A DNA stretch of 64,000 nucleotides, taken from positions 1 to 64,000 of the IMG/VR virus record IMGVR_UViG_3300025121_000027. The stretch is one strand, 5' to 3'. A program made the position numbers and the translations under genes. A model generated the notes under the pieces. It had not been told where the DNA came from. It searched no databases and was given only the letters and a program-made list of their open reading frames with translations. This document shows positions 6,989 to 61,864 of this stretch, piece by piece. Positions within the stretch are counted from its first letter, which is position 1, and every line of letters begins with the position of its first letter. Source of the DNA: a virus.

Positions 6989-9067
6989 TTATCCTGCACT
7001 CAATTGATACAATGGAAACACAATATCTCCCCATCCGTTAGCATAAGTAACAGTTTTCAAGGCTTCATAAACATCTGTCAATCTTATCATCGGGTCTTCA
7101 TCCCCTCTTTTCTTTTTCTTTTGATCCGATGAAAGAGCTATCTTTGTAATGTATCCTATGACTGCTCGGCGAACGTTCTCTGCATCTTCTCCCTTTTGTT
7201 TTATCTTGTATATAATATCTTTGATTCGCGCCCAGGATTCGCCGTTCGCTAATGACTGGCATAAATCCTTTATCTCTGCTTCAAGCGGCGTAAAACTGTT
7301 AATAGCTGTTATGATCGCTTCATCTTCAAGATCGATTACTTGGTCCAGTATTTTCAAAGCATCTCTCGGACAGCCATCGGCAGTATCTATAATTGCTTGA
7401 ATAGCTTTATCTGGAAATGAGCCAACATCTTCTTTCTTTAGAGTTCTGAGAAGAAGGGTTTTCATTTCTGTATCATTCAAAGGGTTGACTTTAAATGTAT
7501 GGCATCGGCTATGAATGGTTCCGATAAGTCTTTGCGGGTCTGTAGTACAAAGAATAAAATAAACCCAAGGCGGTGGCTCTTCCAAAGTTGTCAAGAAATT
7601 ATTCTGTGGAATGTTCTTCTCGGACGCACCGCCAGAGCCTATCATATGGCAATTATGAACAGGTAAACCGTTAGCGAAATAAGACGGATGATTTTTAACT
7701 TGCAAATCATAACAAATTACATATCCTTGATCTTTTTCTTTATCTCCGATAATACTTTGGAAACATTCGTCATTATTTCCTCGTTTGTAAATCTCAGAAT
7801 TTGCCAGCCTAATTCCTTTAGTTTTGCTGTTTTCTTTATATCTCTCAATATAATTTTTTTCGCACCGTGACTCTTTCCATCTACTTCTATTGCAAGCTTC
7901 AGTTTCTTGTTGCCAATATCTACTTTGTAGCAAGTTGGATAGCCAGGAAATCTTCCACCAAGCGGAATAGCAACTTCCATAGGCCAATTCAATGCTTTTG
8001 ACAATAAGACTTGTGGCTTTGTGAACTCCCCATTCCCTCCACGAGGAACAGGGCACAGGTGCAATGTTCCATTTGTCTCTTTTGTAGATTTCATTTTTTC
8101 TACATACTCTAAATTGAACATGGGATTTTTCTTTTTCATTCGCTTGGAATGTTTCTCTCCTATATAATCTCTCATTTCTTGAGACATATTTTTCCAAGCT
8201 TTTGCTACGCTCTTGCTGCGTTTTTTTCTGGCTTGTTCTGTATTGCATGTCGCTCTGTATTCTGGATGCTGCCGCAAATTCTCGTTGGCACATTTCCTCC
8301 CACAAAATCGATTCCCCAATTTTTTGACAGGCTTGCCGCATATCAAACATAAAGACCGAGATTTTGTCATTGATAAATTGTGACATTCTTTGGAGCAATA
8401 TTTCTGCCATTTCCGAATTACTTTGTTGCACGTCGCGCAATATTTGATTTCTCTCATTTGTTATTCCTATAAATTCAGAATCAAGCGGATAAATTATATC
8501 ATCAGAAGTAAGGTTTTGCGCTTCTACCCATCCCTTTGAAGTAAAAAATAAATGATCTTTAGTTGTATAAATATTTCTATCTTCTGAAAAAGTTAATTTA
8601 ATAAGTCTATCAAAAGATATTTTATTTTGCGATACAGCGACAACTTTATCTTTGCCATATAAAGAAACAATATCTTGATCAACTTTAATTTGTTCAATTG
8701 GGATATTGCCGCTTGGCGTTTCGATCATAGTTCCAGCAGGAAAACATTCTTCGATAAGCCAAACCCTACACTTTGCAACAGATGGTTTATAAGAGATACT
8801 TCTTTTCAATTCCTTAATGGTATCTGCTTTAACATCTCCACCATCAATCTGATAGAAGTCTGGACATTCATCGATAGGCATACCAAGAAGCTTCTCTGCA
8901 ACGATTCTTCCTGTTGTGCTCTTGCCGCTTCCTTTTGGACCCATAAACAACCAAGCGTGTGGCAAGTCTTTTTCTCTGGAAAAGATTGTCTTAATACTAT
9001 TGACCATATCTACATTACCAACAATTTCATCTAATGTCTTTGGTCTGTATGTAGTTTGAAGCGGCAT
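6989..9067 (-). CDS. Clamp loader ATPase (DnaX/gp44-like) containing an intein
   Basis: 692-aa precursor. The host protein is an AAA+ clamp loader: Walker A GPKGSGKS (43-50), Walker B strand VWLIEE, then after the intein HMIGSGG, a sensor-1 strand YFILCTTD, and an SRC arginine-finger motif (IHSRCHTF). Removing the intein (residues 108-472) leaves 327 aa, a normal size for a gp44/DnaX core. The intein sits exactly at Walker B, between LIEE and CHM. The protein would load the sliding clamp (17777) for the DnaE polymerase. Its ATG follows a GAGGAAAG site and a promoter motif at 9091-9121. A complete endonuclease gene lies inside it in another frame. Confidence 0.88.
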   Translation of the reverse strand: MPLQTTYRPKTLDEIVGNVDMVNSIKTIFSREKDLPHAWLFMGPKGSGKSTTGRIVAEKLLGMPIDECPDFYQIDGGDVKADTIKELKRSISYKPSVAKCRVWLIEECFPAGTMIETPSGNIPIEQIKVDQDIVSLYGKDKVVAVSQNKISFDRLIKLTFSEDRNIYTTKDHLFFTSKGWVEAQNLTSDDIIYPLDSEFIGITNERNQILRDVQQSNSEMAEILLQRMSQFINDKISVFMFDMRQACQKIGESILWEEMCQREFAAASRIQSDMQYRTSQKKTQQERSKSLEKYVSRNERLYRRETFQANEKEKSHVQFRVCRKNEIYKRDKWNIAPVPCSSWREWGVHKATSLIVKSIELAYGSCYSAWWKISWLSNLLQSRYWQQETEACNRSRWKESRCEKNYIERYKENSKTKGIRLANSEIYKRGNNDECFQSIIGDKEKDQGYVICYDLQVKNHPSYFANGLPVHNCHMIGSGGASEKNIPQNNFLTTLEEPPPWVYFILCTTDPQRLIGTIHSRCHTFKVNPLNDTEMKTLLLRTLKKEDVGSFPDKAIQAIIDTADGCPRDALKILDQVIDLEDEAIITAINSFTPLEAEIKDLCQSLANGESWARIKDIIYKIKQKGEDAENVRRAVIGYITKIALSSDQKKKKRGDEDPMIRLTDVYEALKTVTYANGWGDIVFPLYQLSAG
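7652..8746 (-). mobile_element. Intein in the clamp loader (365 aa) with an out-of-frame endonuclease gene
   Basis: N-terminal splicing block starts at Cys108 (CFPAGTMIETPSGNIP); a block-B-like TTKDHLFFT follows. The C-terminal block ends YFANGLPVHN followed by Cys (+1). Splicing would join LIEE to CHMIG. The middle (about residues 205-450) has no endonuclease motif in the intein frame and reads like shadow translation. A Vsr/PD-(D/E)XK-like nuclease is encoded in another frame there. The whole intein frame is nevertheless stop-free. Confidence 0.85.
7717..8457 (-). CDS. Homing endonuclease (Vsr-like/PD-(D/E)XK) nested inside the intein in another frame
   Basis: 246 aa. The N-terminal half has zinc-ribbon pairs (YCATCNKVI, CSKEC, CLICGKPVK, FCGRKC) and a NUMOD-like basic helix region. 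The C-terminal half has an EDxHD/Vsr-like nuclease pattern: KVDIGNKKLKLAIEVDGKSHG, then KLKELGWQILRFTNEEI. The ATG at 8457 has an upstream AGGA, and the gene ends before the C-terminal intein block. It would make the double-strand break that spreads the intein. Related nucleases are reported from genes placed between split inteins. Confidence 0.8.
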   Translation of the reverse strand: MREIKYCATCNKVIRKWQKYCSKECHNLSMTKSRSLCLICGKPVKKLGNRFCGRKCANENLRQHPEYRATCNTEQARKKRSKSVAKAWKNMSQEMRDYIGEKHSKRMKKKNPMFNLEYVEKMKSTKETNGTLHLCPVPRGGNGEFTKPQVLLSKALNWPMEVAIPLGGRFPGYPTCYKVDIGNKKLKLAIEVDGKSHGAKKIILRDIKKTAKLKELGWQILRFTNEEIMTNVSKVLSEIKKKIKDM

Positions 9068-10478: not shown

Positions 10479-11627
10479 TTAATAAATGTCAGATTGTCTA
10501 TTTGCATAAGCTTCGTCCATGGTAACTTCTTCACGGTCATTAGCTTTAAGCCATTTATTCAAATATTTTAGAGCAACTTCGTTTGCTTCGTTCTGTTGTT
10601 TCTCAGACATTAGAGAAAATCCACCTCTAAATGTAGACGGAATACCTGTAGCATAACACATGGCAGCTTGTCCAAGCCATGCTATTCTGTTCATGGCGCT
10701 ATTTGTTAGGTAGTGTTCGCAAGAATGTTTCCACTCCTTTATAACATGTTCAAGTGTAGCAGCAAATTTCTTTGGGTTAGATAAAAACTTTTTATACTCT
10801 TCTTCGCACTCGCTTTTAGTTTTTCCATGCATTGTAGTATTATAAAAACCAGCCTTATAACATTCCCATTTTTCATATGTGTGGAAAATCCTATTTTCAT
10901 CACTCGTGTTTACTGTTCTAAATTCTTTATCTTCTTCTTTAAAATCGTCTACATCATCGCTCAACTCTTCAAAATCAGATTCGGTTACTTCTCCTTCAAC
11001 ATCCCATGCTTTTGAAAATTCTTGATCTGAAAATAATTCGATAAGCCCTGTTATTTGACACAAGCGCAAAATTTCATCTTCATCCATTCCAAGTTCTCTT
11101 GAAATTTTTTCATTGTCCCAATTTCTTCTTTTTAATTCTAAGACAATATCAGACATCTTTTCTATCTGATGTTTGCCCCTTGCGCGATTATGTCTAATAG
11201 TTGCCGCTATTCTATCTGATTTTGATTCTCTTTCATGATTTATAATAGCAAGAGGAAGATAACCTAAAATTCTTTTCTTCGCTTCTTTTGATTCTTTGCC
11301 GACTCTATTTCTATGAAAGCCGTCTACTACTTCGAATATATCTTGTTCATTTCTCCATGCGACAATTGGTTGCGTATAGCCGTCTTCACATATTGATCTT
11401 TCAAGCAGTTTCATTTCTGGAGGAGCTACAGAATTTGGATTATAATCATTTGCATGAACCATGTCTGATTTAATCCACTGCACACAATCAACAGGCTCAT
11501 TTTTAAATGGACTATACTTGTGAAGTTCTTTTCTTATTTCATTAATTGCTTCGATTAAATCTCTTTGGTTTAAAATATCAAGAGATTTAAATAAGTCTTT
11601 CGATTTCTTAATAACTTCTTTTTTCAT
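10479..11627 (-). CDS. IbrB-like ParB/Srx-domain protein
   Basis: 382 aa. A ParB/sulfiredoxin-like domain occupies about residues 50-190. It includes NDYNPNSV, EDGYTQPIVAW, EVVDGFHRNRVG (the family's D-G-x-x-R) and AATIRHNRARGKH, followed by an HTH-like region (NDKISRELGMDEDEI in outline). The C-terminal half is acidic and then helical. It lies 12 bp upstream of the IbrA-like gene, as in the IbrAB pair, and overlaps the DnaE gene stop as ATGA. In known cases the pair influences gene expression; here a role in DNA metabolism is inferred from its position. Confidence 0.75.
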   Translation of the reverse strand: MKKEVIKKSKDLFKSLDILNQRDLIEAINEIRKELHKYSPFKNEPVDCVQWIKSDMVHANDYNPNSVAPPEMKLLERSICEDGYTQPIVAWRNEQDIFEVVDGFHRNRVGKESKEAKKRILGYLPLAIINHERESKSDRIAATIRHNRARGKHQIEKMSDIVLELKRRNWDNEKISRELGMDEDEILRLCQITGLIELFSDQEFSKAWDVEGEVTESDFEELSDDVDDFKEEDKEFRTVNTSDENRIFHTYEKWECYKAGFYNTTMHGKTKSECEEEYKKFLSNPKKFAATLEHVIKEWKHSCEHYLTNSAMNRIAWLGQAAMCYATGIPSTFRGGFSLMSEKQQNEANEVALKYLNKWLKANDREEVTMDEAYANRQSDIY

Positions 11628-14600
11628 TTTGTCGCTTCCTTAAATGCTTTGCTGAACTCTTCGATTCCTTTTTCAAACAGTTCTCTATTTCTTGGATTTC
11701 TCAATACCGCAGATGGATGAAGGCTCCAAACTACATATGCTTCTAAAGATTTAATCCATTGTCTTTGCCCTGCTAATGTAGTAATGCCTCCATCCTTTCC
11801 TGTAAATGCTTTCAAGCAAATGTTACCACAAGCAAGAACGAGTTTGCATTTAGTCTTCTTTAATTCATCCATTAACCAAGGAAGACATGCTTGTATATGA
11901 TCTTCTTTCGGCGTCTTTGTTTTTGAAGGATAGCATCTACAGGCGTTTGAAACATATACATCCGATCTATTGATATTATACTTTGCTAAAGTACTCCAAA
12001 GCAAATCGCCAGCGGGACCAATAAATCCCATTCTTTTAATTGAACCATCTCTCATTTGTACTCCAATGTCTTCTCGTCTTCCTGGCGCTTCGCCGATTAC
12101 AAATATATTATACTTTCCAATGCTCGTTAATATTGGCTCTTGCGCTTCTTCTGCTAAACTGCATCGCTTGCACTTTGATATTCTTTCGCTTCTATACTTT
12201 ATCTTTTCAGCTTTCAAAATTCTATCTTGCTTCTGTATTAGTTTATTTGATCCTCGCCCACATTCAAAAGGCAAGTACTCACTTAGGTTACTTGGAATTG
12301 ATTCTGGATCATAGGCATCTATCTTTTCTAATGTCTCTTCTATTTTTGTTTTCTTCTTGGCAACAGGATTAATATTAAAAAAGCCTTTGTTCTTTGGTTT
12401 TGCTACTATCTTATTTTCTACACACTTTAAAGCATTACTTTCTCCAAAAGATTTAATTTCTGCAAACGGAGTATAAAGACAATTATCTTTTATTGTCCAC
12501 CTTAATGCATCTGATATTCCTATCTTCGGCGGCATTATAGATAAGCCAATTTCTTTTGCTTCATCTATGATATGTTGTTTATGCTTTTGAACATCTTTCT
12601 TCTTTTCATCATATTCACCATAAGATAGAGTAGCACAAAAAAACTCTACTGGATAATGCGCTTTTAAATATGCAGTACGATAAGCAATCAAAGCATATGC
12701 AGTACTATGCCCTCTTCCGAATCCATAACGTGCCCAATGAAGAAGACCGTCCCAAAATTCTCCAGCTTCTTTAGGGCTAAATGTTTTTTGTTTAGCACAA
12801 CCATCAACAAATTGCTTTTTATATGGCTCGAATTCTTTAGGGTCTCTTTTCTTTCCTATAACTCTTCTAATACTATCTGCATCTGATTCTGACATTCCAG
12901 CCATTCTGGAAATTACTTTCATCACTTGTTCTTGATACACGAGCTGGCCGTATGTATCTTTTGTAATATCTTCATATATAGGATGATCTTTATCCCAATG
13001 CTTTCCTTTCTTTCTTTCAACATATTCTTCCGTCATGCCGGATTCCGATGGTCCTGGTCGTATAAGAGCAAGTGCAGCGTTAAGATGTTCAAAGCAAGAG
13101 ATACCCATTTGAGTACATAATTCTGTCAACGGCCTTGCAGATACTTGAAACAAGCCAGCAGTTTTTCCAGAATCAATAAACTCAAATGCTTCAGGGTCTT
13201 CTTCTGGTATTGTTTCTATTTCAAAGCTTGAGTTGGATTGTTTTATTAAAGTTCGGCACTCTTCTAATACAGATATTGTAGCAAGACCGAGCACATCAAG
13301 TTTCATAAGTCCTTGATGCTCGCAGTTTTTCATATTCCAATTTACTACTTGATAATCTCCACGCTTTACAAGAACGCATCTTGTTCCTTGTGTTAAATCT
13401 TCTCCACTTATAATTACTCCAGCGGCATGTCTTCCAGCATTTCTAAACTGTCCTTCAAGTTTTAAAGCGAGTTTAATTTGCTTTGGATGTTTCTCTGCAA
13501 ATTGTTTTGCTTCTGAATTTCTTTCAACAGCATATTCTATTGCACTTCCTTCGTGATCTGGATTGTCCCATATAGAGTTTGCCATATCCGATACTTCATC
13601 ATTAGGCAAATCAAATACTCTTCCTATATCACGAATAACCGCTTTACTTTTCATCTGCATTTCAGTAGAGATATAAGCAACATTATTCTTACCGTAGATT
13701 TCAAATAAAGCATCTACTGCTTGCTGTCTATATCTCTTTTCAATATCTAAATCAATATCTGGTAGATCATTGCGGTCCTCAGAAAGAAATCTTGAAAAAG
13801 GAAGATCATATTTAATTGGATCAAGTCCTTCTGTAATATGAAGTAAATGAGCTATCAATGCTCCAGCTACACTTCCACGACCAGGGCCAACTCCCCATCC
13901 TTTACTCTTACAATATAAAACAAAATCTTGAACGATTAGAAAGTATCTTGAGAAGTCTTTCTTGCCAATCAAAGCAAGTTCTGTTTCTAATCGTTCTTTG
14001 TATTCTGTTTTTCTATCAAGGCCAAATTCTCTCAATCCAATTAAGCATCTACTTTTTAATTCTTGAAATTCACTTTGCTCTGATATTTTATAAGGAAGAT
14101 TGGGAAGAGATATATTTTGTTTCTTTATTTCAAAGTTAGAACATCTTTCAGCTATTTGAACGGTTCTTTCAATTGCTTTATATACTTCTCTCTTTGTAAA
14201 GTCTCCTTGCTTTTCAAAGGCTTGAAGCATTTCATCTGCTGTTCTCAAATGAAGACCCTTAAATCCAAACCTCCATCTATTAGGATCATTCCACTTAGCA
14301 TTACTTTGAATAGCTAAAAGAACTTCTTGCGCTTCCCAATCTTCCTCAAGGATATAGTGATTGTCATTGGTTGCAACTAATGGCCATTCACTATAATCTT
14401 TTTTTATCTTTGCATGAAGTTGTTTCTGGCTCTTGATATTGTGCGGCATAACTTCAATAAATACAGAATCTTTATTTGCTTTCTCATCTAAGTCTCTAAC
14501 AAATCTATCAGAAGCATTTATAACAGAAGCAGCGCAACCAGTAAGAAAGATCAAACCATCAAGATTAGAATTTAGAATTTGTTCATAATCGCATCTTGGC

Positions 14601-14947
14601 CGATGATAGAATCCTTCGAGGCTTGCTTTTGTTAACCACTTGCAGAGAGTTCTCCACCCATTTATATTTTCTACAAGCACTGTTAGATGGCTTCGCTTTT
14701 CTCCTTTGTCTTTCTTATTCATATCCGAAACTACATAGAGTTCGCAGCCGACAACAGGAAGTATATTGGCTTTCTTACATTCCTGCTGCCACTCAATTGC
14801 GCCGTCTACATTTCCGTGATCTGTTAAAGCAATAGATTTAAAGCCAAGCTCTGCTGCTCTTTTAATGTAGTTAGCAGAAGTACCAAAGCCATCAAGCCAG
14901 CTCCGGGTGGAGTGCAAATGCAGATGAACAAAAGAACTGTTATCCAT
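11624..14947 (-). CDS. DNA polymerase III alpha (DnaE) fused to a family-4 uracil-DNA glycosylase
   Basis: 1107 aa. PHP domain with HLHLHS (8-13) and LTDHGN; polymerase core with GPGRGS (354-359) and the catalytic Asp motifs PDIDLD (396-401) and KLDVLG (Asp551). From about residue 920 a UDG replaces the usual OB-fold/tau-binding tail. It shows an Fe-S type Cys set (926, 929, 1003 or 1005, 1021), GEAPGRRED (952-960) and WSLHPSAV (His1077). This is the replicative polymerase. The fused UDG could sense or remove uracil at the fork. No separate DnaQ exonuclease is visible in the window. Confidence 0.9.
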   Translation of the reverse strand: MDNSSFVHLHLHSTRSWLDGFGTSANYIKRAAELGFKSIALTDHGNVDGAIEWQQECKKANILPVVGCELYVVSDMNKKDKGEKRSHLTVLVENINGWRTLCKWLTKASLEGFYHRPRCDYEQILNSNLDGLIFLTGCAASVINASDRFVRDLDEKANKDSVFIEVMPHNIKSQKQLHAKIKKDYSEWPLVATNDNHYILEEDWEAQEVLLAIQSNAKWNDPNRWRFGFKGLHLRTADEMLQAFEKQGDFTKREVYKAIERTVQIAERCSNFEIKKQNISLPNLPYKISEQSEFQELKSRCLIGLREFGLDRKTEYKERLETELALIGKKDFSRYFLIVQDFVLYCKSKGWGVGPGRGSVAGALIAHLLHITEGLDPIKYDLPFSRFLSEDRNDLPDIDLDIEKRYRQQAVDALFEIYGKNNVAYISTEMQMKSKAVIRDIGRVFDLPNDEVSDMANSIWDNPDHEGSAIEYAVERNSEAKQFAEKHPKQIKLALKLEGQFRNAGRHAAGVIISGEDLTQGTRCVLVKRGDYQVVNWNMKNCEHQGLMKLDVLGLATISVLEECRTLIKQSNSSFEIETIPEEDPEAFEFIDSGKTAGLFQVSARPLTELCTQMGISCFEHLNAALALIRPGPSESGMTEEYVERKKGKHWDKDHPIYEDITKDTYGQLVYQEQVMKVISRMAGMSESDADSIRRVIGKKRDPKEFEPYKKQFVDGCAKQKTFSPKEAGEFWDGLLHWARYGFGRGHSTAYALIAYRTAYLKAHYPVEFFCATLSYGEYDEKKKDVQKHKQHIIDEAKEIGLSIMPPKIGISDALRWTIKDNCLYTPFAEIKSFGESNALKCVENKIVAKPKNKGFFNINPVAKKKTKIEETLEKIDAYDPESIPSNLSEYLPFECGRGSNKLIQKQDRILKAEKIKYRSERISKCKRCSLAEEAQEPILTSIGKYNIFVIGEAPGRREDIGVQMRDGSIKRMGFIGPAGDLLWSTLAKYNINRSDVYVSNACRCYPSKTKTPKEDHIQACLPWLMDELKKTKCKLVLACGNICLKAFTGKDGGITTLAGQRQWIKSLEAYVVWSLHPSAVLRNPRNRELFEKGIEEFSKAFKEATK

Positions 14948-44364: not shown

Positions 44365-45270
44365 ATGTTTAATGCTTTTGACATATCCAGCTATACACCA
44401 AGACAGCTAATGGATTCAATTCCACCGAATCCTATTCCGATAGCCGAAAGAATACTGGCAGAAAAATCATTAAAGCATTTTGTAATGCAAGCCTGGCATA
44501 TACTTGAGCCGAGAAGCCCTTTGATTTGGAATTGGCATCTTGATGCAATCTGCCAACACTTAGAAGCAGTAACAAACACCTATCTTATTAAATCAGGAAT
44601 AGCTGGAAGAGAAATAGACAACCATTTCTATGAAGCAAATTATTCCATTCCTTCTATAAACTACTTATGGATAAATATGCCGCCGAGACATGGTAAGAGT
44701 TTGCTTGTTTCTGTCTTCTGGCCATGTTGGGAGTGGGGTCCGAAAAACCTTCCAGACTTACGATATCTTTTCATCTCATATGCACAGCCACTATCTACCA
44801 GAGACAATTTAAAACGAAGAAGATTGATAGAGTCCAATTGGTATAGAGAAAGATGGGGAGAGCGTTTTCATCTTACTACAGATCAGAATGCAAAAACTCG
44901 CTTCGATAATGACAGAACAGGAGTAATGATTGCAACTTCTATCTCTGGTCTTGGAACGGGCGAAGGCGGGCAACGCGTTTGTCTACCATATAACCAGAAG
45001 ATAGATACAGAAATTGGTAGGGTCGAGATCGGAAAGATCGTCAAAGAAAAATTAGAAATCAAAGTTGTTAGTTTTAATCATAAGACAAATAAAACAGAAC
45101 TTTCTAAAATAGAAAAGTATTTTGAAAATGAAGGCCGAGATATTTTTGAGATAGAACTTGAAGACGGCACGACATTTCGATGTACTGAAGATCATCCTGT
45201 ATATGTTAATGGTAAAGGGTATATTCAAGCAAGAGAATTAACAGAAGAAGATGAGGTGGTCTGCTTATAA
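44365..45270 (+). CDS. Terminase large subunit, N-terminal half plus N-intein
   Basis: 301 aa. ATPase N-terminus with Walker A NMPPRHGKSLLVS near residue 110 and GVMIATSISGLGTGEGGQRV. At Cys206 a 96-residue N-intein starts (CLPYNQKIDTEIG), with a block-B-like CTEDHPVYV. The gene ends at TAA, which overlaps the ATG of the endonuclease as TAATG. The C-half is at 46280; trans-splicing would restore RV-CIDDAHN at Walker B, giving about 536 aa. Confidence 0.85.
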   Translation: MFNAFDISSYTPRQLMDSIPPNPIPIAERILAEKSLKHFVMQAWHILEPRSPLIWNWHLDAICQHLEAVTNTYLIKSGIAGREIDNHFYEANYSIPSINYLWINMPPRHGKSLLVSVFWPCWEWGPKNLPDLRYLFISYAQPLSTRDNLKRRRLIESNWYRERWGERFHLTTDQNAKTRFDNDRTGVMIATSISGLGTGEGGQRVCLPYNQKIDTEIGRVEIGKIVKEKLEIKVVSFNHKTNKTELSKIEKYFENEGRDIFEIELEDGTTFRCTEDHPVYVNGKGYIQARELTEEDEVVCL

Positions 45271-46393
45271 TGGGTTGTTTATATCAAATAACTTCTCCAT
45301 CTGGTAAGTCTTATATAGGCATTACTAATTTTACCGCTCAAGAAAGATGGTCTCAGCATGTAGGCGAAGCATTAGGGTCAAGGTCTAAAAGAGCAATTTC
45401 TAATGCTATAAGAAAATATAGCTCTGATTTGTTTGATGTTAAAACACTTCTTATTGCAAATGATGCGGCTTATTTAAAGTTGATGGAAGTTAAAGTAATT
45501 GCGGCATTTAAAACGCATACACCTAATGGTTATAATATGACTGCTGGCGGAGATGGTGTTGTTGATTTAGATAGCGAGACTTTTAAAAATCTTCTTGAAA
45601 AACGCTTAAAAACTATAAGGTCGAAAGTATATAGAAAGAAAAATTCAGAAACTCAAAAGGCGCTTTGGACAGAAGAAAAAAGACAAGAAAGATCAAGAGT
45701 TGTTTCTGAATTGTGGGAAGATGAAAATTATCGCAATCATATGTCTGAAGTTCACAAAGGATGGCATTATTCTAAAAGAGAAAGAGAAAAAGCGTCTATA
45801 CGTTCTAAAAAACGCTGGAGTAATCCGGAGTATGTCAAAAGACATAAACTTATGATGAAGAAACTTTGGCAAGATGATGAATTTAAAAAGAAAATGGCTG
45901 AAGCCACAACCGATGAAGTAAAAAAGAAGATAGGTGTTGCTTCAAGAAAGATGTGGTCTGATCCAGAGTTTCATGCAAAAAGAAGTAAGCAAATGAAAGA
46001 GTATTTTAATTTGCCAGAAGTTAAAGAAAAAATAGCTGAAAAAACAAGACAACAAATGGCTGATCCAGAAGCAAGAAAAAAGATTGGTGAAGCCATGTGT
46101 AAGCATCGAGGTTATATCTTTTCAAAAGGTATTAAACCAAAAAATCCGAGAAGCGTGTTTTATAAAATTTGGGACAAGATAGAAAGTAAGATAACATTCG
46201 CAGAGCTTTATCGTTTTGATATTGAAAGCCGTAGAATATCAGAAGCTGTTGATCGTGGCTATTTGGTGATTGTTAAATAATGAAGATTAAGAAGATAAAA
46301 AGTATTAGACGAATCAGAAAAGACTCTGCTACTTATAATATTCAAGTAGCAGATAACTATAATTATTTTGCCAATGGTGTACTTGTTCATAAT
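44980..46393 (+). mobile_element. Split intein with a GIY-YIG endonuclease gene between the halves
   Basis: N-intein 44980-45267 (96 codons), endonuclease gene 45270-46280, C-intein 46280-46393 (38 codons, ending ANGVLVHN then Cys+1). Junctions are TAATG at both ends. The arrangement matches the fractured-gene split inteins described from metagenomes, with a free-standing homing enzyme between the halves. N- and C-intein lengths are typical of naturally split inteins. Confidence 0.85.
45270..46280 (+). CDS. GIY-YIG homing endonuclease (free-standing)
   Basis: 336 aa. The GIY-YIG core is present: CLYQITSPSGKSYIGIT, later QERWSQHVGEAL, LKLMEVKVIAAFKTH and PNGYNMTAGGDG. Then there are repeated NUMOD3-like basic helices with W-x-D/N-P-E patterns (KRWSNPEYV, LWQDDEFK, MWSDPEF). 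It would cleave intein-less terminase genes to drive homing. The ATG overlaps the terminase stop as TAATG, and its own TAA overlaps the next ATG. Confidence 0.9.
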   Translation: MGCLYQITSPSGKSYIGITNFTAQERWSQHVGEALGSRSKRAISNAIRKYSSDLFDVKTLLIANDAAYLKLMEVKVIAAFKTHTPNGYNMTAGGDGVVDLDSETFKNLLEKRLKTIRSKVYRKKNSETQKALWTEEKRQERSRVVSELWEDENYRNHMSEVHKGWHYSKREREKASIRSKKRWSNPEYVKRHKLMMKKLWQDDEFKKKMAEATTDEVKKKIGVASRKMWSDPEFHAKRSKQMKEYFNLPEVKEKIAEKTRQQMADPEARKKIGEAMCKHRGYIFSKGIKPKNPRSVFYKIWDKIESKITFAELYRFDIESRRISEAVDRGYLVIVK

Positions 46394-47389
46394 TGTATTG
46401 ATGACGCCCATAACGTGCTTGAAGTAGAATCAGAGCCAAAAAGACAAAAAGTATTAGCTGTCTGGGACGATACTCTTTCAACTCGTGTCAATGATGTAGA
46501 AGTCGGTGCTTATGTCGGCGTCATGCAAAGAACACATTCAAAAGATTTAACTGGTCATATTTTAGAAAAGAGAAAAGATGGGCAGATAGACAATCTTGTG
46601 CATGTATGTCTTCCTGCAAGATACGAAAAGAATCATCCGCACCCTTCTGATACTCCATTAAACTTTACAGACCCAAGAACAGTAGAAGGCGAGCCTTTAG
46701 ATAAAGGAAGACATCCAGAAGATAGTCTAAAGCAATTAGAGGGAAAACTTACTGCCTGGGGTAAGGCTGGTCAGTTACAGCAAAGACCAAGGCCAAAAGG
46801 TGGTCAGATTGTTCAAGCAGGAAAAATTAAGATAGTAGATAACTATAATCATAGATTAGTAAAGAAGATGGTGCGTTACTGGGACAAAGCTGCCTCTGAG
46901 GATAAAAGTGCTTCTCACTCAGTAGGTCTTCTGATGGCATCTATGAGAGATGAATGTATTGACTACGGCTTTATTGTTCTGGATGTTGTCTACGGCCAAT
47001 GGACTTCTGGCGAGCGTGATGTAAGAATGCGTCAAACTGCTCAGATGGATGGAATAGAAGTTGAACATGTAGTAGAGCAAGAAGGTGGCTCCGGCGGTAA
47101 AGAATCAGCACAAAACTCCATAAGAAAAGTATTTCTTGGTTATAAGTGTTCAGCAGATCACCCATCAGGCGCAAAAGATGTAAGACTTGAGCCGTTCGCT
47201 GGCCAAGTAGAAAACAACAATATTGCTATGTTATCTGCTCCTTGGAATAAAAAATATGTGGAAGCATTAGAAGAGTGCTCTGTTGGTTCCGTAACAGACT
47301 TTGGGGATGGTTCTTCTGGTGCTTTTAACTGGCTTAATGGTTTAACTGGTAAGGGAAAGTCTAAAGTAAGAATAGGAGTTGTAGGATAA
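46280..47389 (+). CDS. Terminase large subunit, C-terminal half with C-intein
   Basis: 369 aa. The first 38 residues are the C-intein, ending NYFANGVLVHN, then Cys39 starts the extein (CIDDAHN, the Walker B region). The rest has motifs of the terminase C-terminal nuclease (VRYWDKAASEDKS, FIVLDVVYGQW). After trans-splicing it would join residue 205 of the N-half. The ATG overlaps the endonuclease stop (TAATG). Confidence 0.85.
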   Translation: MKIKKIKSIRRIRKDSATYNIQVADNYNYFANGVLVHNCIDDAHNVLEVESEPKRQKVLAVWDDTLSTRVNDVEVGAYVGVMQRTHSKDLTGHILEKRKDGQIDNLVHVCLPARYEKNHPHPSDTPLNFTDPRTVEGEPLDKGRHPEDSLKQLEGKLTAWGKAGQLQQRPRPKGGQIVQAGKIKIVDNYNHRLVKKMVRYWDKAASEDKSASHSVGLLMASMRDECIDYGFIVLDVVYGQWTSGERDVRMRQTAQMDGIEVEHVVEQEGGSGGKESAQNSIRKVFLGYKCSADHPSGAKDVRLEPFAGQVENNNIAMLSAPWNKKYVEALEECSVGSVTDFGDGSSGAFNWLNGLTGKGKSKVRIGVVG

Positions 47390-59362: not shown

Positions 59363-61864
59363 TTGACAATCTTCTCTAAAATATTTGGATCGAAAAACAA
59401 AAAAGAAAGTCGAATAGCTCGCTTGCTATTTTCTTCTGGTGGCGGTGCTATTTATAGTGAAAAGAACTATGAAAATTTCAGCAGAGAAACATATCTAAAA
59501 AATGTGATTGGTTTTAGATGTATTCTTGAAATTGCTCAAGCTTGTTCTTTTGTGGATTGGTATCTTGAAAAAAGAATATCTCAAGATCAAACAGAAATAG
59601 TAACAGATCATGAAGTAAATAATTTGCTACATAGACCAAATAGAGATAACTCTTGGTCTATGTTAATGTATAGATCGGCGGCATTTCTTGCTTTATCTGG
59701 TAATACTTTTTTTGAGAAAGTACGATTACAAACAAGAAATGCAAAGTTTCCTTCTGAAATGTATGTACTTAGACCAGATAGAATTACTTTGGTTCCAGGC
59801 GATAATGGAAGATTAAAACAATACGAATATACTACAAATCAAGGCAAAGAATATTTTGATATAGACCCTATAACTAATGAATGTGATTTACTTCATGTTC
59901 ATACTTTTCATCCAACAAATGATTTTTGGGGCGCTGGTCCGGTTGAGCCAGCAAGTAGAGAAATAGATATCTCCAACGAAACAACTGATTGGAACATGTC
60001 TTTGATTCGCAATCAGGGGCGACCAGGGATGGTTTTTACTATTGTTGGAGATATGGGAGATGATGATTTTGCAGCTTTTGAAAGAACTTTAAATGAAAAA
60101 TTTACTGGCCCATCTAATGCCGGAAAGAATATAGTAATTACAGGAGACAATGGAACAAAAGCAGAACCTTATTCTTTTACTCCACAAGAGATGGAGTTTG
60201 TAGAAGGAAGCAGAGAATCGGCAAGAAGAATTGCTTTATCTTTTGGTGTTCCGCCTATGCTTCTTGGTGTTCCTGGGGATAACACGTATTGTTTGCCTGC
60301 TGATGCAACAATATCTACTCCTAAAGGGCCAAAAGAGATTGTAAATCTTTCAAAAGGCGATTTTGTTTATTCTCTTGTAGATGGACAAATGAAGGCTATG
60401 TCTGTTTCTTGGCAAGGCAAGGTCGGCAGGAAACAACTTTATAAAGTAAAAACTAAGAATAGAGAAGTTGTTGCTACTTCTAATCATCCTTTTCTTGTTC
60501 GAGAATCATTTAAAATTGAATCTCCTAATATTGGAAAAAGGCGCAGTAAAGAAATTGAATATCGTCTTGTCTATAAGGAACTTAAAGACATTAAAGTTGG
60601 CGATGTATTAGTTCAAGCCAGTAGCCTGCCAACTTTTGAGGAAAGCAATCCTTATAATATCTCTATAGAAGAGATGGAACTTTTAGGACTTTATCTCGGA
60701 GATGGGTATTGTTCTAAGCCGGTAATGATTGGAGACGGCAAAGGATATAAAAGAGGCGGTAGTTTTATTATAGCGGCAAGTCCAAATGCTTCTTATAGAA
60801 ATTATTATTTAAACATAGTGCAAAAACTTACTGGATCAGAAGGCCACATCGGGAAAAATTGTGTTGCTTTTGGAAGTTCTTCATATGTCAGGCGCATAGA
60901 TTATCTTGGCTTTAGCGGTACTGCTCATCAAAAAAGAATACCGGAGTGGGTATTCTCGATGCCAGAAGAATATAAGCTTGCTTTACTTAGAGGTTTGATT
61001 GATTCTGATGGCAGTATTGATAAGAATGGCAGAGCTTCTTTTGCACTTTGTAATAAAAACCTTATCAAAGACATATGGAGCCTTTGTTTATCTTGTAGTT
61101 TGCAAGTCGGAAGTGTTTGTACAAGAGAAAGAGAAGCAACACTTCCGAATGGCAAAAAATTTAATCAAATATATCATATTTTTATGATTTCATGCGCTTC
61201 TGATGTTGCTAAAATAGGAACGCATACGACAGTTTATAAAGAAAGAATACAGGCTAATGTTTTTAAAGATAAAAAGCAACTTCTTTCTGCTACTGGAGGC
61301 AATTCGAGTTTTGAAAAAATTACTTCTCTTTTAAATACAAATGAGTTTCATTTTGCTAAAGTAGTTGATATAGAAAAGCAAGATGTTCAAGATGTTTATG
61401 ACATTGAAGTAAATGGTAGCCACAATTTTATAGCCGAAGGCATTGTTGTTCATAACTCAAACCTCAAGGAAGCGCGTCAAGCATTTTATGAAGGAACAGT
61501 TCAATTCTATTTAAATATGCTTTGTTCCGAATTAAACAATTGGTTGTTTAAGCCAGAGGATAAATTAGCTATCCGATATGATATGGATAATGTTCCCGCT
61601 CTTGAACCAAGATGGGAAAGTAAATGGAAAAGAGCAGAGAACGCGGACTTCCTTACTATCAACGAAAAAAGAGAATTGACTGGTTATGAGAAGTATGAAG
61701 GTGGAGATGTAATTCTTGTTCCGATGGGGATGCAAACTCTTCAAATGGCAACTGAAGAAAAAGAAGAAGAAATAGAAAATATTGAAGATGATGCAAAAAA
61801 AGTATCTGTAACTGATGAAGAGTTTGAACTTCTAATGGGTTTAAGAGAGAAATGGAATGAGTAA
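59363..61864 (+). CDS. Portal protein (HK97 type) with intein
   Basis: 833-aa precursor with TTG start (59363-59365) and an AAAAAGGAA site. The N-extein (309 aa) has RIALSFGVPPMLLGVPGDNTY, and the C-extein has SNLKEARQAFYEGTVQFYL, the well-known HK97 portal stem motif. The intein sits between Tyr309 and that Ser. The mature portal is about 444 aa. It forms the dodecameric channel for DNA packaging. Confidence 0.93.
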   Translation: MTIFSKIFGSKNKKESRIARLLFSSGGGAIYSEKNYENFSRETYLKNVIGFRCILEIAQACSFVDWYLEKRISQDQTEIVTDHEVNNLLHRPNRDNSWSMLMYRSAAFLALSGNTFFEKVRLQTRNAKFPSEMYVLRPDRITLVPGDNGRLKQYEYTTNQGKEYFDIDPITNECDLLHVHTFHPTNDFWGAGPVEPASREIDISNETTDWNMSLIRNQGRPGMVFTIVGDMGDDDFAAFERTLNEKFTGPSNAGKNIVITGDNGTKAEPYSFTPQEMEFVEGSRESARRIALSFGVPPMLLGVPGDNTYCLPADATISTPKGPKEIVNLSKGDFVYSLVDGQMKAMSVSWQGKVGRKQLYKVKTKNREVVATSNHPFLVRESFKIESPNIGKRRSKEIEYRLVYKELKDIKVGDVLVQASSLPTFEESNPYNISIEEMELLGLYLGDGYCSKPVMIGDGKGYKRGGSFIIAASPNASYRNYYLNIVQKLTGSEGHIGKNCVAFGSSSYVRRIDYLGFSGTAHQKRIPEWVFSMPEEYKLALLRGLIDSDGSIDKNGRASFALCNKNLIKDIWSLCLSCSLQVGSVCTREREATLPNGKKFNQIYHIFMISCASDVAKIGTHTTVYKERIQANVFKDKKQLLSATGGNSSFEKITSLLNTNEFHFAKVVDIEKQDVQDVYDIEVNGSHNFIAEGIVVHNSNLKEARQAFYEGTVQFYLNMLCSELNNWLFKPEDKLAIRYDMDNVPALEPRWESKWKRAENADFLTINEKRELTGYEKYEGGDVILVPMGMQTLQMATEEKEEEIENIEDDAKKVSVTDEEFELLMGLREKWNE
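60290..61456 (+). mobile_element. Portal intein with in-frame LAGLIDADG endonuclease (389 aa)
   Basis: Begins Cys310 (CLPADATISTPKGPK) with a block-B-like ATSNHPFLV, and ends NFIAEGIVVHN followed by Ser (+1). Contains two LAGLIDADG helices: ELLGLYLGDGYCSK and ALLRGLIDSDGSID. A single intact ORF, so splicing and homing functions share one chain. Confidence 0.93.

What the first reader, a model, noticed from the sequence alone, without database searches (positions are those of the whole stretch)
7652..8746. Endonuclease encoded in a second frame inside a still-open intein
In the clamp-loader intein, about 741 nt (7717-8457) are open in two minus-strand frames. One frame carries the intein through to its C-terminal splicing block; the other codes for a 246-aa zinc-ribbon/Vsr-like nuclease with its own AGGA and ATG. 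The middle of the intein frame reads like shadow translation without domain motifs. In AT-rich DNA, stop codons should appear often in a random frame, so this openness looks selected: the intein stays one polypeptide while the homing enzyme is made separately. I do not recall such an arrangement; it would be intermediate between contiguous and split inteins.
Basis: partly seen in the sequence, partly recalled or inferred. Interest (0 to 1): 0.93.

Follow-up and report, generated by a model that had tools for sequence, protein, structure and literature searches.

The report
Intein with endonuclease in second frame
A self-splicing protein insert (an intein) in a phage DNA-replication gene carries, in a second overlapping reading frame, the gene for the DNA-cutting enzyme that probably spreads it; the same two-frame layout recurs in dozens of phage contigs and in sequenced phage isolates, so it is a conserved and largely unannotated type of mobile intein rather than an accident.

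Summary
ORF 6989-9067(-) is a DnaX-like clamp loader whose 365-aa intein (7652-8746) contains, wholly nested in the +1 frame, a 246-aa zinc-ribbon/EDxHD-type nuclease (7717-8457). The layout is conserved: all 61 distinct loci found with the nuclease, including Vibrio, Corynebacterium and Pseudomonas phage isolates, have no stop in the intein frame across the nuclease and 1-31 in the third frame, always in the same phase. Of 69 loci found through the intein N-lobe instead, 68 carry the nested nuclease. Nuclease wobble T is absent (0/972) where it would create an intein-frame stop, against 65% elsewhere. Substitutions peak at host codon position 3 outside the overlap but at nuclease position 3 inside it, so the intein frame there is mainly a stop-free linker between Hint lobes. 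In some phage pairs near-identical inteins sit in diverged exteins, and empty, mini-intein and nested alleles coexist at one Vibrio phage helicase site, as expected of homing. Most likely the gene is read through and the intein splices, while the nuclease is made from an internal start. Translation, splicing and cleavage remain unshown. Closest known: the ShiLan out-of-frame HNH (not an intein) and split inteins. One unread 2025 preprint could reduce novelty.

The parts
6989..9067 (-). Clamp-loader (DnaX-like AAA+) gene, 692-aa uninterrupted ORF including the intein
8747..9067 (-). N-extein (residues 1-107), ending at the Walker B motif ...WLIEE
   Evidence: an IMG/VR relative, L221, matches the joined 327-aa extein over residues 1-324 at 44%
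7652..8746 (-). Intein, residues 108-472, CFPAGT...VHN, 365 aa
   Evidence: Pfam PF14890 48.3 bits; Hint fold, best PDB match gp41-1 intein 6qaz
8477..8746 (-). Intein N-terminal Hint lobe (about 90 aa), single coding
   Evidence: AF2 pLDDT about 86-95; invariant C1, F2, H65
8465..8468 (-). Shine-Dalgarno-like AGGA, 7 nt before the nested ATG
   Evidence: sequence; -4.2 kcal/mol in the window, family median -6.4 against matched control -3.6
8461..8463 (-). In-frame TAA just upstream of the nested ATG, closing the nuclease frame to frameshift entry from upstream
   Evidence: sequence
7717..8457 (-). Nested homing-endonuclease gene, 246 aa, +1 relative to the intein frame
8383..8439 (-). First zinc ribbon of the nuclease (C7, C10, C21, C25)
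   Evidence: sequence
8290..8349 (-). Second zinc ribbon (C37, C40, C52, C56), invariant or nearly invariant in the family
7768..7980 (-). Nuclease catalytic domain (residues about 160-230; invariant D180, D193, H197, D206, W218, R222, N225; E191 nearly invariant)
   Evidence: Foldseek to I-Bth0305I 3r3p E 6.7e-4, probability 1.00
7820..8457 (-). Shadow part of the intein frame: stop-free linker, mostly low-confidence structure
   Evidence: AF2 pLDDT about 30-75; substitution pattern in relatives; largely removed by deletion in relics L095, L122, L155
7717..7819 (-). Doubly structured overlap: nuclease C-terminus (LRFTNEE and last helix) over the start of the intein C-lobe (RLANSEIYKRG...)
7652..7819 (-). 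Intein C-terminal Hint lobe ending YDLQV...YFANGLPVHN|C
6989..7651 (-). C-extein (CHMIGSGG...), rest of the clamp loader

Best explanation
This is a mobile intein whose splicing domain and homing endonuclease are encoded by two overlapping frames of one stretch of DNA. Ribosomes starting at the clamp-loader ATG read through the whole gene; the Hint lobes at either end of the intein fold together across a long, mostly structureless linker, excise the intein and join the exteins. Other ribosomes start at the internal SD/ATG (8455-8468) and make a free-standing 246-aa two-zinc-ribbon EDxHD/Vsr-type nuclease. That enzyme cuts intein-less alleles at the Walker B codons, and repair copies the intein in. 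Shown here: the two frames, selection on both (stop avoidance in one, protein conservation in the other), conservation of phase, ribosome-binding signals across the family, and tract-limited transfer of the element between diverged phages. Inferred: translation of both products, splicing, zinc binding, cleavage and target site.
For: No stop in the intein frame in 61/61 loci, third frame closed; P(no stop) 4e-10 for the window locus; wobble T 0/972 against 65% where harmless, while host-gene codons show no such bias, 58% against 56%. Codon-position flip between relatives: exteins 52/28/189 and 105/57/440 at host positions 1/2/3, inside the overlap 48/12/9. SD at the nested start stronger than matched controls, p 2e-10. 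Inteins mostly 0-8% different per 75-nt block inside exteins mostly 7-25% different, with edges at the intein junctions. Empty (141O35-1, DECHH), mini-intein (K457, 268E42.1) and nested-nuclease (1.088.O) alleles at one Vibrio phage helicase site; the length missing from BLAST hits to empty alleles equals the 1068-nt intein. Recovery by intein N-lobe alone gives 68/69 with the nested nuclease. Relics with the nuclease core deleted but the intein frame kept. Nuclease model pLDDT 91, nearest PDB fold the homing endonuclease I-Bth0305I; intein lobes nearest the gp41-1 intein. The element moved between clamp loaders and helicase-like genes, at least 3 label changes forced.
Against: No expression, splicing or cleavage data. 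The window's own SD is modest (AGGA, -4.2 kcal/mol), and a few relatives (L056, L057, L070, L074) have none detectable. No close relative of the window locus itself was found, so the substitution test rests on other family members, and the number of close pairs is small. The intein search profile was built from nested-type loci, so 68/69 is not an unbiased frequency; mini-inteins without the nuclease exist at the same site. The AF2 model of the whole intein has pTM 0.49.
Confidence: 0.9

Rival explanations
1. The nuclease is made by programmed ribosomal frameshifting from the intein frame, as an extein-intein-N-nuclease fusion, not by internal initiation.
For: The phase is always the same (+1 relative to the host), as expected of a fixed shift; a few loci lack a visible SD.
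Against: In the window and in most loci the nuclease frame is closed by an in-frame stop 0-15 codons upstream of its start, so a shift would have to fall in that short gap. SD signals at the start exceed matched controls. The phase is also the one in which overlap stops can be avoided purely at nuclease wobble positions, so it needs no frameshift to explain it.
Confidence: 0.05
2. The intein frame is the only functional frame and the nuclease is a decaying or vestigial out-of-frame homing gene.
For: Shortened relics exist (L095, L122, L155).
Against: In the overlap, differences between relatives concentrate at nuclease third positions, so the nuclease protein is under purifying selection; active-site residues are invariant across 25-29 diverse members; recent transfer tracts.
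Confidence: 0.03
3. The nuclease frame is functional and the intein frame is open only by chance or by codon bias; the host gene is effectively split and its protein not made whole.
For: The middle of the intein frame has no domain of its own and is predicted mostly unstructured.
Against: P(no stop) between about 1e-4 and 1e-13 for nearly all complete loci with own codon usage (related loci are not independent); complete depletion of stop-making wobble T; intact C-lobe and HN|C or SN|C in frame in nearly every complete locus.
Confidence: 0.01
4. The two-frame openness is an assembly or sequencing artefact.
For: The window is a metagenome-derived contig; the matching WWE3 MAG contig MEWG01000047 has the same length as the IMG/VR contig and is probably the same assembly.
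Against: The same layout is in independently sequenced isolates: Vibrio phages CP-T1, Rostov M3, K391, 1.088.O, 104E43.1, Corynebacterium phage phi673, Pseudomonas phage MR14, each annotated as one uninterrupted gene.
Confidence: 0.01

Closest known systems
[quoted passage not shown]
   Same: A mobile endonuclease gene is inserted in a host gene in a different frame, and the host frame stays open across it.
   Different: ShiLan is reported to have no intein or intron splicing domain, the nuclease is HNH, no ribosome-binding site was found, and it is described in actinobacteriophages. Here the carrier is a true Hint intein, the nuclease is EDxHD/DUF559-like, there is an SD in most loci, and the family is spread over phages of several bacterial groups and at least two kinds of host gene.
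Split inteins of 'fractured genes' (Dassa et al. 2009, cited in PMC12350094), e.g. gp41-1
   Same: A homing gene separate from the splicing domain lies between the intein halves; gp41-1 is the nearest solved splicing fold.
   Different: There the N-half ends in a stop, the C-half has its own start and splicing is in trans; the gp41-1 loci read here carry an unrelated ORF in between, which by its MYYVGLT...N-terminus looks like GIY-YIG. Here one continuous frame crosses the nuclease gene.
Canonical mobile inteins with an in-frame homing endonuclease domain (e.g. PI-SceI; the LAGLIDADG portal intein at 59363-61864 in this window)
   Same: Contiguous cis-splicing intein with a homing endonuclease between the Hint lobes; mini-intein relatives exist.
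   Different: The endonuclease there is part of the intein polypeptide; here it is a separate protein from another frame.
EDxHD (Vsr-like) homing endonuclease I-Bth0305I
   Same: Nearest solved fold of the nuclease domain (3r3p, Foldseek E 6.7e-4, probability 1.00; profile E 0.0025).
   Different: Different DNA-binding part (zinc ribbons plus helices) and it sits nested in an intein; Pfam's best family is DUF559.

Membership tests
Intein (Hint, class 1) | N-terminal nucleophile Cys, block A/B motifs, C-terminal HN and +1 Cys/Ser/Thr in one frame with the host | tested here: met
   C1, H65 (block B), VHN|C; Pfam PF14890 above cut-off
Intein (Hint, class 1) | Hint fold | tested here: met
   AF2 lobes about 86-95 pLDDT; Foldseek to 6qaz E 1.6e-6, probability 1.00
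Intein (Hint, class 1) | Autocatalytic protein splicing | not testable with these tools
   needs expression and mass spectrometry
Canonical intein with in-frame homing endonuclease | Endonuclease domain in the same polypeptide and frame as the intein | tested here: not met
   The nuclease profile matches only the +1 frame; 0 of 69 matched in frame
Split intein / fractured gene | Intein frame interrupted, two separately started halves | tested here: not met
   Intein frame open across the nuclease in 61/61 loci; contrast gp41-1 loci
EDxHD/Vsr-like homing endonuclease | Vsr/PD-(D/E)xK-like catalytic fold with conserved acidic and His residues | tested here: met
   Fold match to I-Bth0305I; D180, D193, H197, D206 invariant, E191 nearly invariant. 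Equivalence with the published EDxHD motif was not aligned residue by residue.
EDxHD/Vsr-like homing endonuclease | Site-specific cleavage of the intein-less allele | not testable with these tools
   indirect support only: transfer tracts and empty alleles
ShiLan-type out-of-frame endonuclease insertion | HNH endonuclease in a non-splicing insertion | tested here: not met
   The nuclease is DUF559/EDxHD-like and the insertion is an intein; ShiLan features from PMC11855218

The most novel reading that the evidence does not exclude
A third, stable architecture of mobile inteins exists beside contiguous and split ones: 'two-frame' inteins, in which the homing endonuclease is a separate protein encoded by an overlapping frame. 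It is common in phages, inserts at the Walker B motif of unrelated ATPases (clamp loaders, helicases), and is systematically missed because gene finders suppress nested genes.
Probability: 0.8. Interest if true: 0.9.

Novelty: new variant of a known kind. Interest (0 to 1): 0.86.

Why it matters
It shows a way to uncouple splicing from homing without breaking the host gene: the selfish enzyme gets its own start and can be expressed independently, while the host protein pays only a stop-free linker. It bears directly on how inteins gain and lose endonucleases and could become split. It also supplies a large natural set of long same-strand overlapping genes, with homing, mini-intein and empty-allele controls, for studying overprinting. 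In practice it means homing endonuclease genes are hidden inside annotated phage helicases and clamp loaders; the isolate records read here annotate only the host gene. It also offers natural inteins that appear to tolerate a long insertion between the Hint lobes.

Tried and rejected
Distant blastn of the window gene against phage records: no match. Profile search with the nuclease in gp41-1 split-intein loci: no match; their intervening ORF is unrelated. L063, where the intein frame ends soon after the nuclease, proved to carry a short deletion relative to the near-identical L057 that truncates both frames. L154/L157, the one intein-recovered locus type without the nested nuclease, has a closed intein frame and no recognisable nuclease of this family; not pursued. 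Artefact, chance and vestigial readings were considered and rejected for the reasons under rivals. Literature: ten full-text searches found no paper describing an intein with its endonuclease in an overlapping frame; Dassa 2009 and the preprint 10.1101/2025.01.02.630785 are not held.

Full report
WHAT IS THERE. On the minus strand, 6989-9067 is one 692-codon ORF: a DnaX-like clamp loader (PHROG 5846 E 4e-44, TIGR02397 E 2.5e-45) interrupted by an intein at 7652-8746, junctions ...WLIEE|CFPAGT...GLPVHN|CHMIG.... Inside it, 7717-8457 is open in the +1 frame and encodes a 246-aa protein with two Cys4 zinc ribbons and a DUF559 nuclease domain. Its ATG is preceded by AGGA seven bases upstream and by an in-frame TAA one codon upstream.

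IS IT MORE THAN CHANCE. In this relative phase an intein-frame stop can arise only where a nuclease codon ends in T and the next begins AA, AG or GA, so stops can be avoided at silent nuclease positions. With the nuclease protein fixed and codons drawn from its own usage, the chance of no stop is 4e-10 for the window, 3e-14 with host-gene usage. Of the window's NNY codons in a stop-making context 0/22 end in T, against 56/69 elsewhere. Over 61 loci the figures are 0/972 against 2837/4358 (65%); codons of the same host genes outside the overlap show no effect (58% against 56%). This is direct selection against stops in the intein frame.

IT IS A FAMILY. Nuclease-based searches of IMG/VR, phage records and genomes gave 61 distinct loci; in all 61 the frame at the same phase has no stop across the nuclease, while the third frame has 1-31. 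They include isolates: Vibrio CP-T1, Rostov M3, K391, 1.088.O, 1.194.O, 159E43-1b, 104E43.1, Corynebacterium phi673 and Pseudomonas MR14. There the public annotation shows only one helicase-like gene, not the nested nuclease. A separate search using only the intein N-lobe gave 69 distinct loci, 68 with the nested nuclease and none with it in frame; that profile was built from nested-type inteins, so this is not an unbiased frequency. Nearly all inteins sit at a Walker B-like DE|C, in clamp loaders and in helicase-like ATPases. The nuclease tree forces at least three switches between the two host types, e.g. L008 (clamp loader) beside L009 (helicase-like).

WHICH FRAME IS CONSTRAINED. In four close pairs, differences in the exteins peak at host codon position 3 (52/28/189 and 105/57/440 for positions 1/2/3), as do those in the single-coding intein ends (6/1/15 and 13/6/63; the second window reaches a little into the extein). 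In the overlap they peak at host position 1, which is nuclease position 3 (48/12/9). The nuclease protein is therefore conserved there and the intein-frame protein drifts, subject to staying open. AlphaFold agrees: nuclease mean pLDDT 91; intein lobes about 86-95 but the shadow stretch mostly 30-75. The last ~35 codons are an exception, carrying the end of the nuclease in one frame and C-lobe strands of the intein in the other. Relics L095, L122 and L155 have lost the nuclease core by deletion and keep a shorter open intein, so the shadow linker seems dispensable.

HOW THE NUCLEASE IS MADE. Candidate starts carry stronger SD signals than matched internal ATGs (median -6.4 against -3.6 kcal/mol, p 2e-10), and the nuclease frame is closed shortly upstream in most loci, which favours internal initiation over frameshifting. 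The window's own SD is modest, and four relatives show none.

WHAT IT DOES. The nearest solved fold of the nuclease is the homing endonuclease I-Bth0305I (3r3p, E 6.7e-4, probability 1.00); the best sequence match is the endonuclease-like 3hrl (E 1e-10). Mobility shows in sequence: in L018/L019, L022/L023 and L032/L034 the intein is mostly 0-8% different per 75-nt block while flanking exteins are mostly 7-25% different, with the change at the intein edges. At one helicase site, Vibrio phages carry three kinds of allele: uninterrupted (141O35-1, DECHH), a ~149-aa mini-intein without nuclease (K457, 268E42.1, PS65A.1), and the 356-aa nested intein (1.088.O). That is the pattern expected of a homing cycle.

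COMPARISON. Canonical inteins hold the endonuclease in frame; split inteins have an interrupted frame. The gp41-1 split-intein loci, whose solved structure is the closest match to these lobes, end their N-half in a stop and carry an unrelated ORF before the C-half. The gp41-1 N-half query was typed from my own knowledge and agrees with the PDB match. The closest published relative in logic is the ShiLan domain (PMC11855218), an out-of-frame HNH gene in a methylase that its authors conclude is not an intein. That paper cites a preprint on actinobacteriophage inteins with 'non-canonical architecture' in connection with overlapping frames; I could not read it, so some priority may lie there. Within the library searched, nothing describes an intein of this layout.

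THREE ARCHITECTURES IN ONE GENOME. The same window appears to hold a contiguous intein with in-frame LAGLIDADG in the portal gene (59363-61864) and a split intein in the large terminase with a GIY-YIG-like gene between the halves (44365-47389), besides the nested one.

VERDICT. Real, selected, conserved and mobile by sequence evidence; translation of both products, splicing and cleavage are inferred. Confidence 0.9 in the two-frame homing-intein explanation. Filed as a new variant of a known kind because intein and nuclease each belong to known families; what is new is how they are combined, and how widespread the combination is.

Noticed in passing
window 44365-47389 (+): Probable split (fractured) large terminase gene: TerL N-part plus intein N-half (44365-45270), GIY-YIG homing-endonuclease-like ORF (45270-46280), intein C-half plus TerL C-part (46280-47389).
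   Followed up: partly
window 59363-61864 (+): Phage portal protein with a contiguous intein carrying an in-frame LAGLIDADG_3 domain; with the nested and split ones, one phage seems to hold all three intein architectures.
   Followed up: partly
L095, L122, L155: Mini-inteins that look like decay products of nested ones: internal deletions removed the nuclease core but kept the intein frame.
   Followed up: partly
L222 (Vibrio phage 1.285.O) and L227 (1.171.O): Intein-free helicase alleles have DE|AHH or DE|SHH at the insertion point instead of DE|CHH; the Ala form could not support splicing and may be a resistant allele.
   Followed up: no
L225 (Vibrio phage PS65A.1): Same helicase carries a second large insertion of intein-like sequence at the P-loop (GGGK|C...HN|T), besides the Walker B mini-intein.
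   Followed up: no
L154 / L157: DECF-site intein N-lobe whose frame closes soon after, with no nuclease of this family; possibly split or broken.
   Followed up: no
L063 against L057: Near-identical contigs; L063 lacks a short stretch at the 3' end of the nuclease, which truncates both frames.
   Followed up: partly
window 11624-14947 (-): DNA polymerase III alpha with a C-terminal uracil-DNA-glycosylase-superfamily domain in one 1107-aa protein.
   Followed up: no
window 6989-9067, context: The locus matches at 100% a contig of a WWE3 (candidate phyla radiation) MAG, MEWG01000047.1, so the host may be WWE3, though binning of a phage contig is weak evidence.
   Followed up: no
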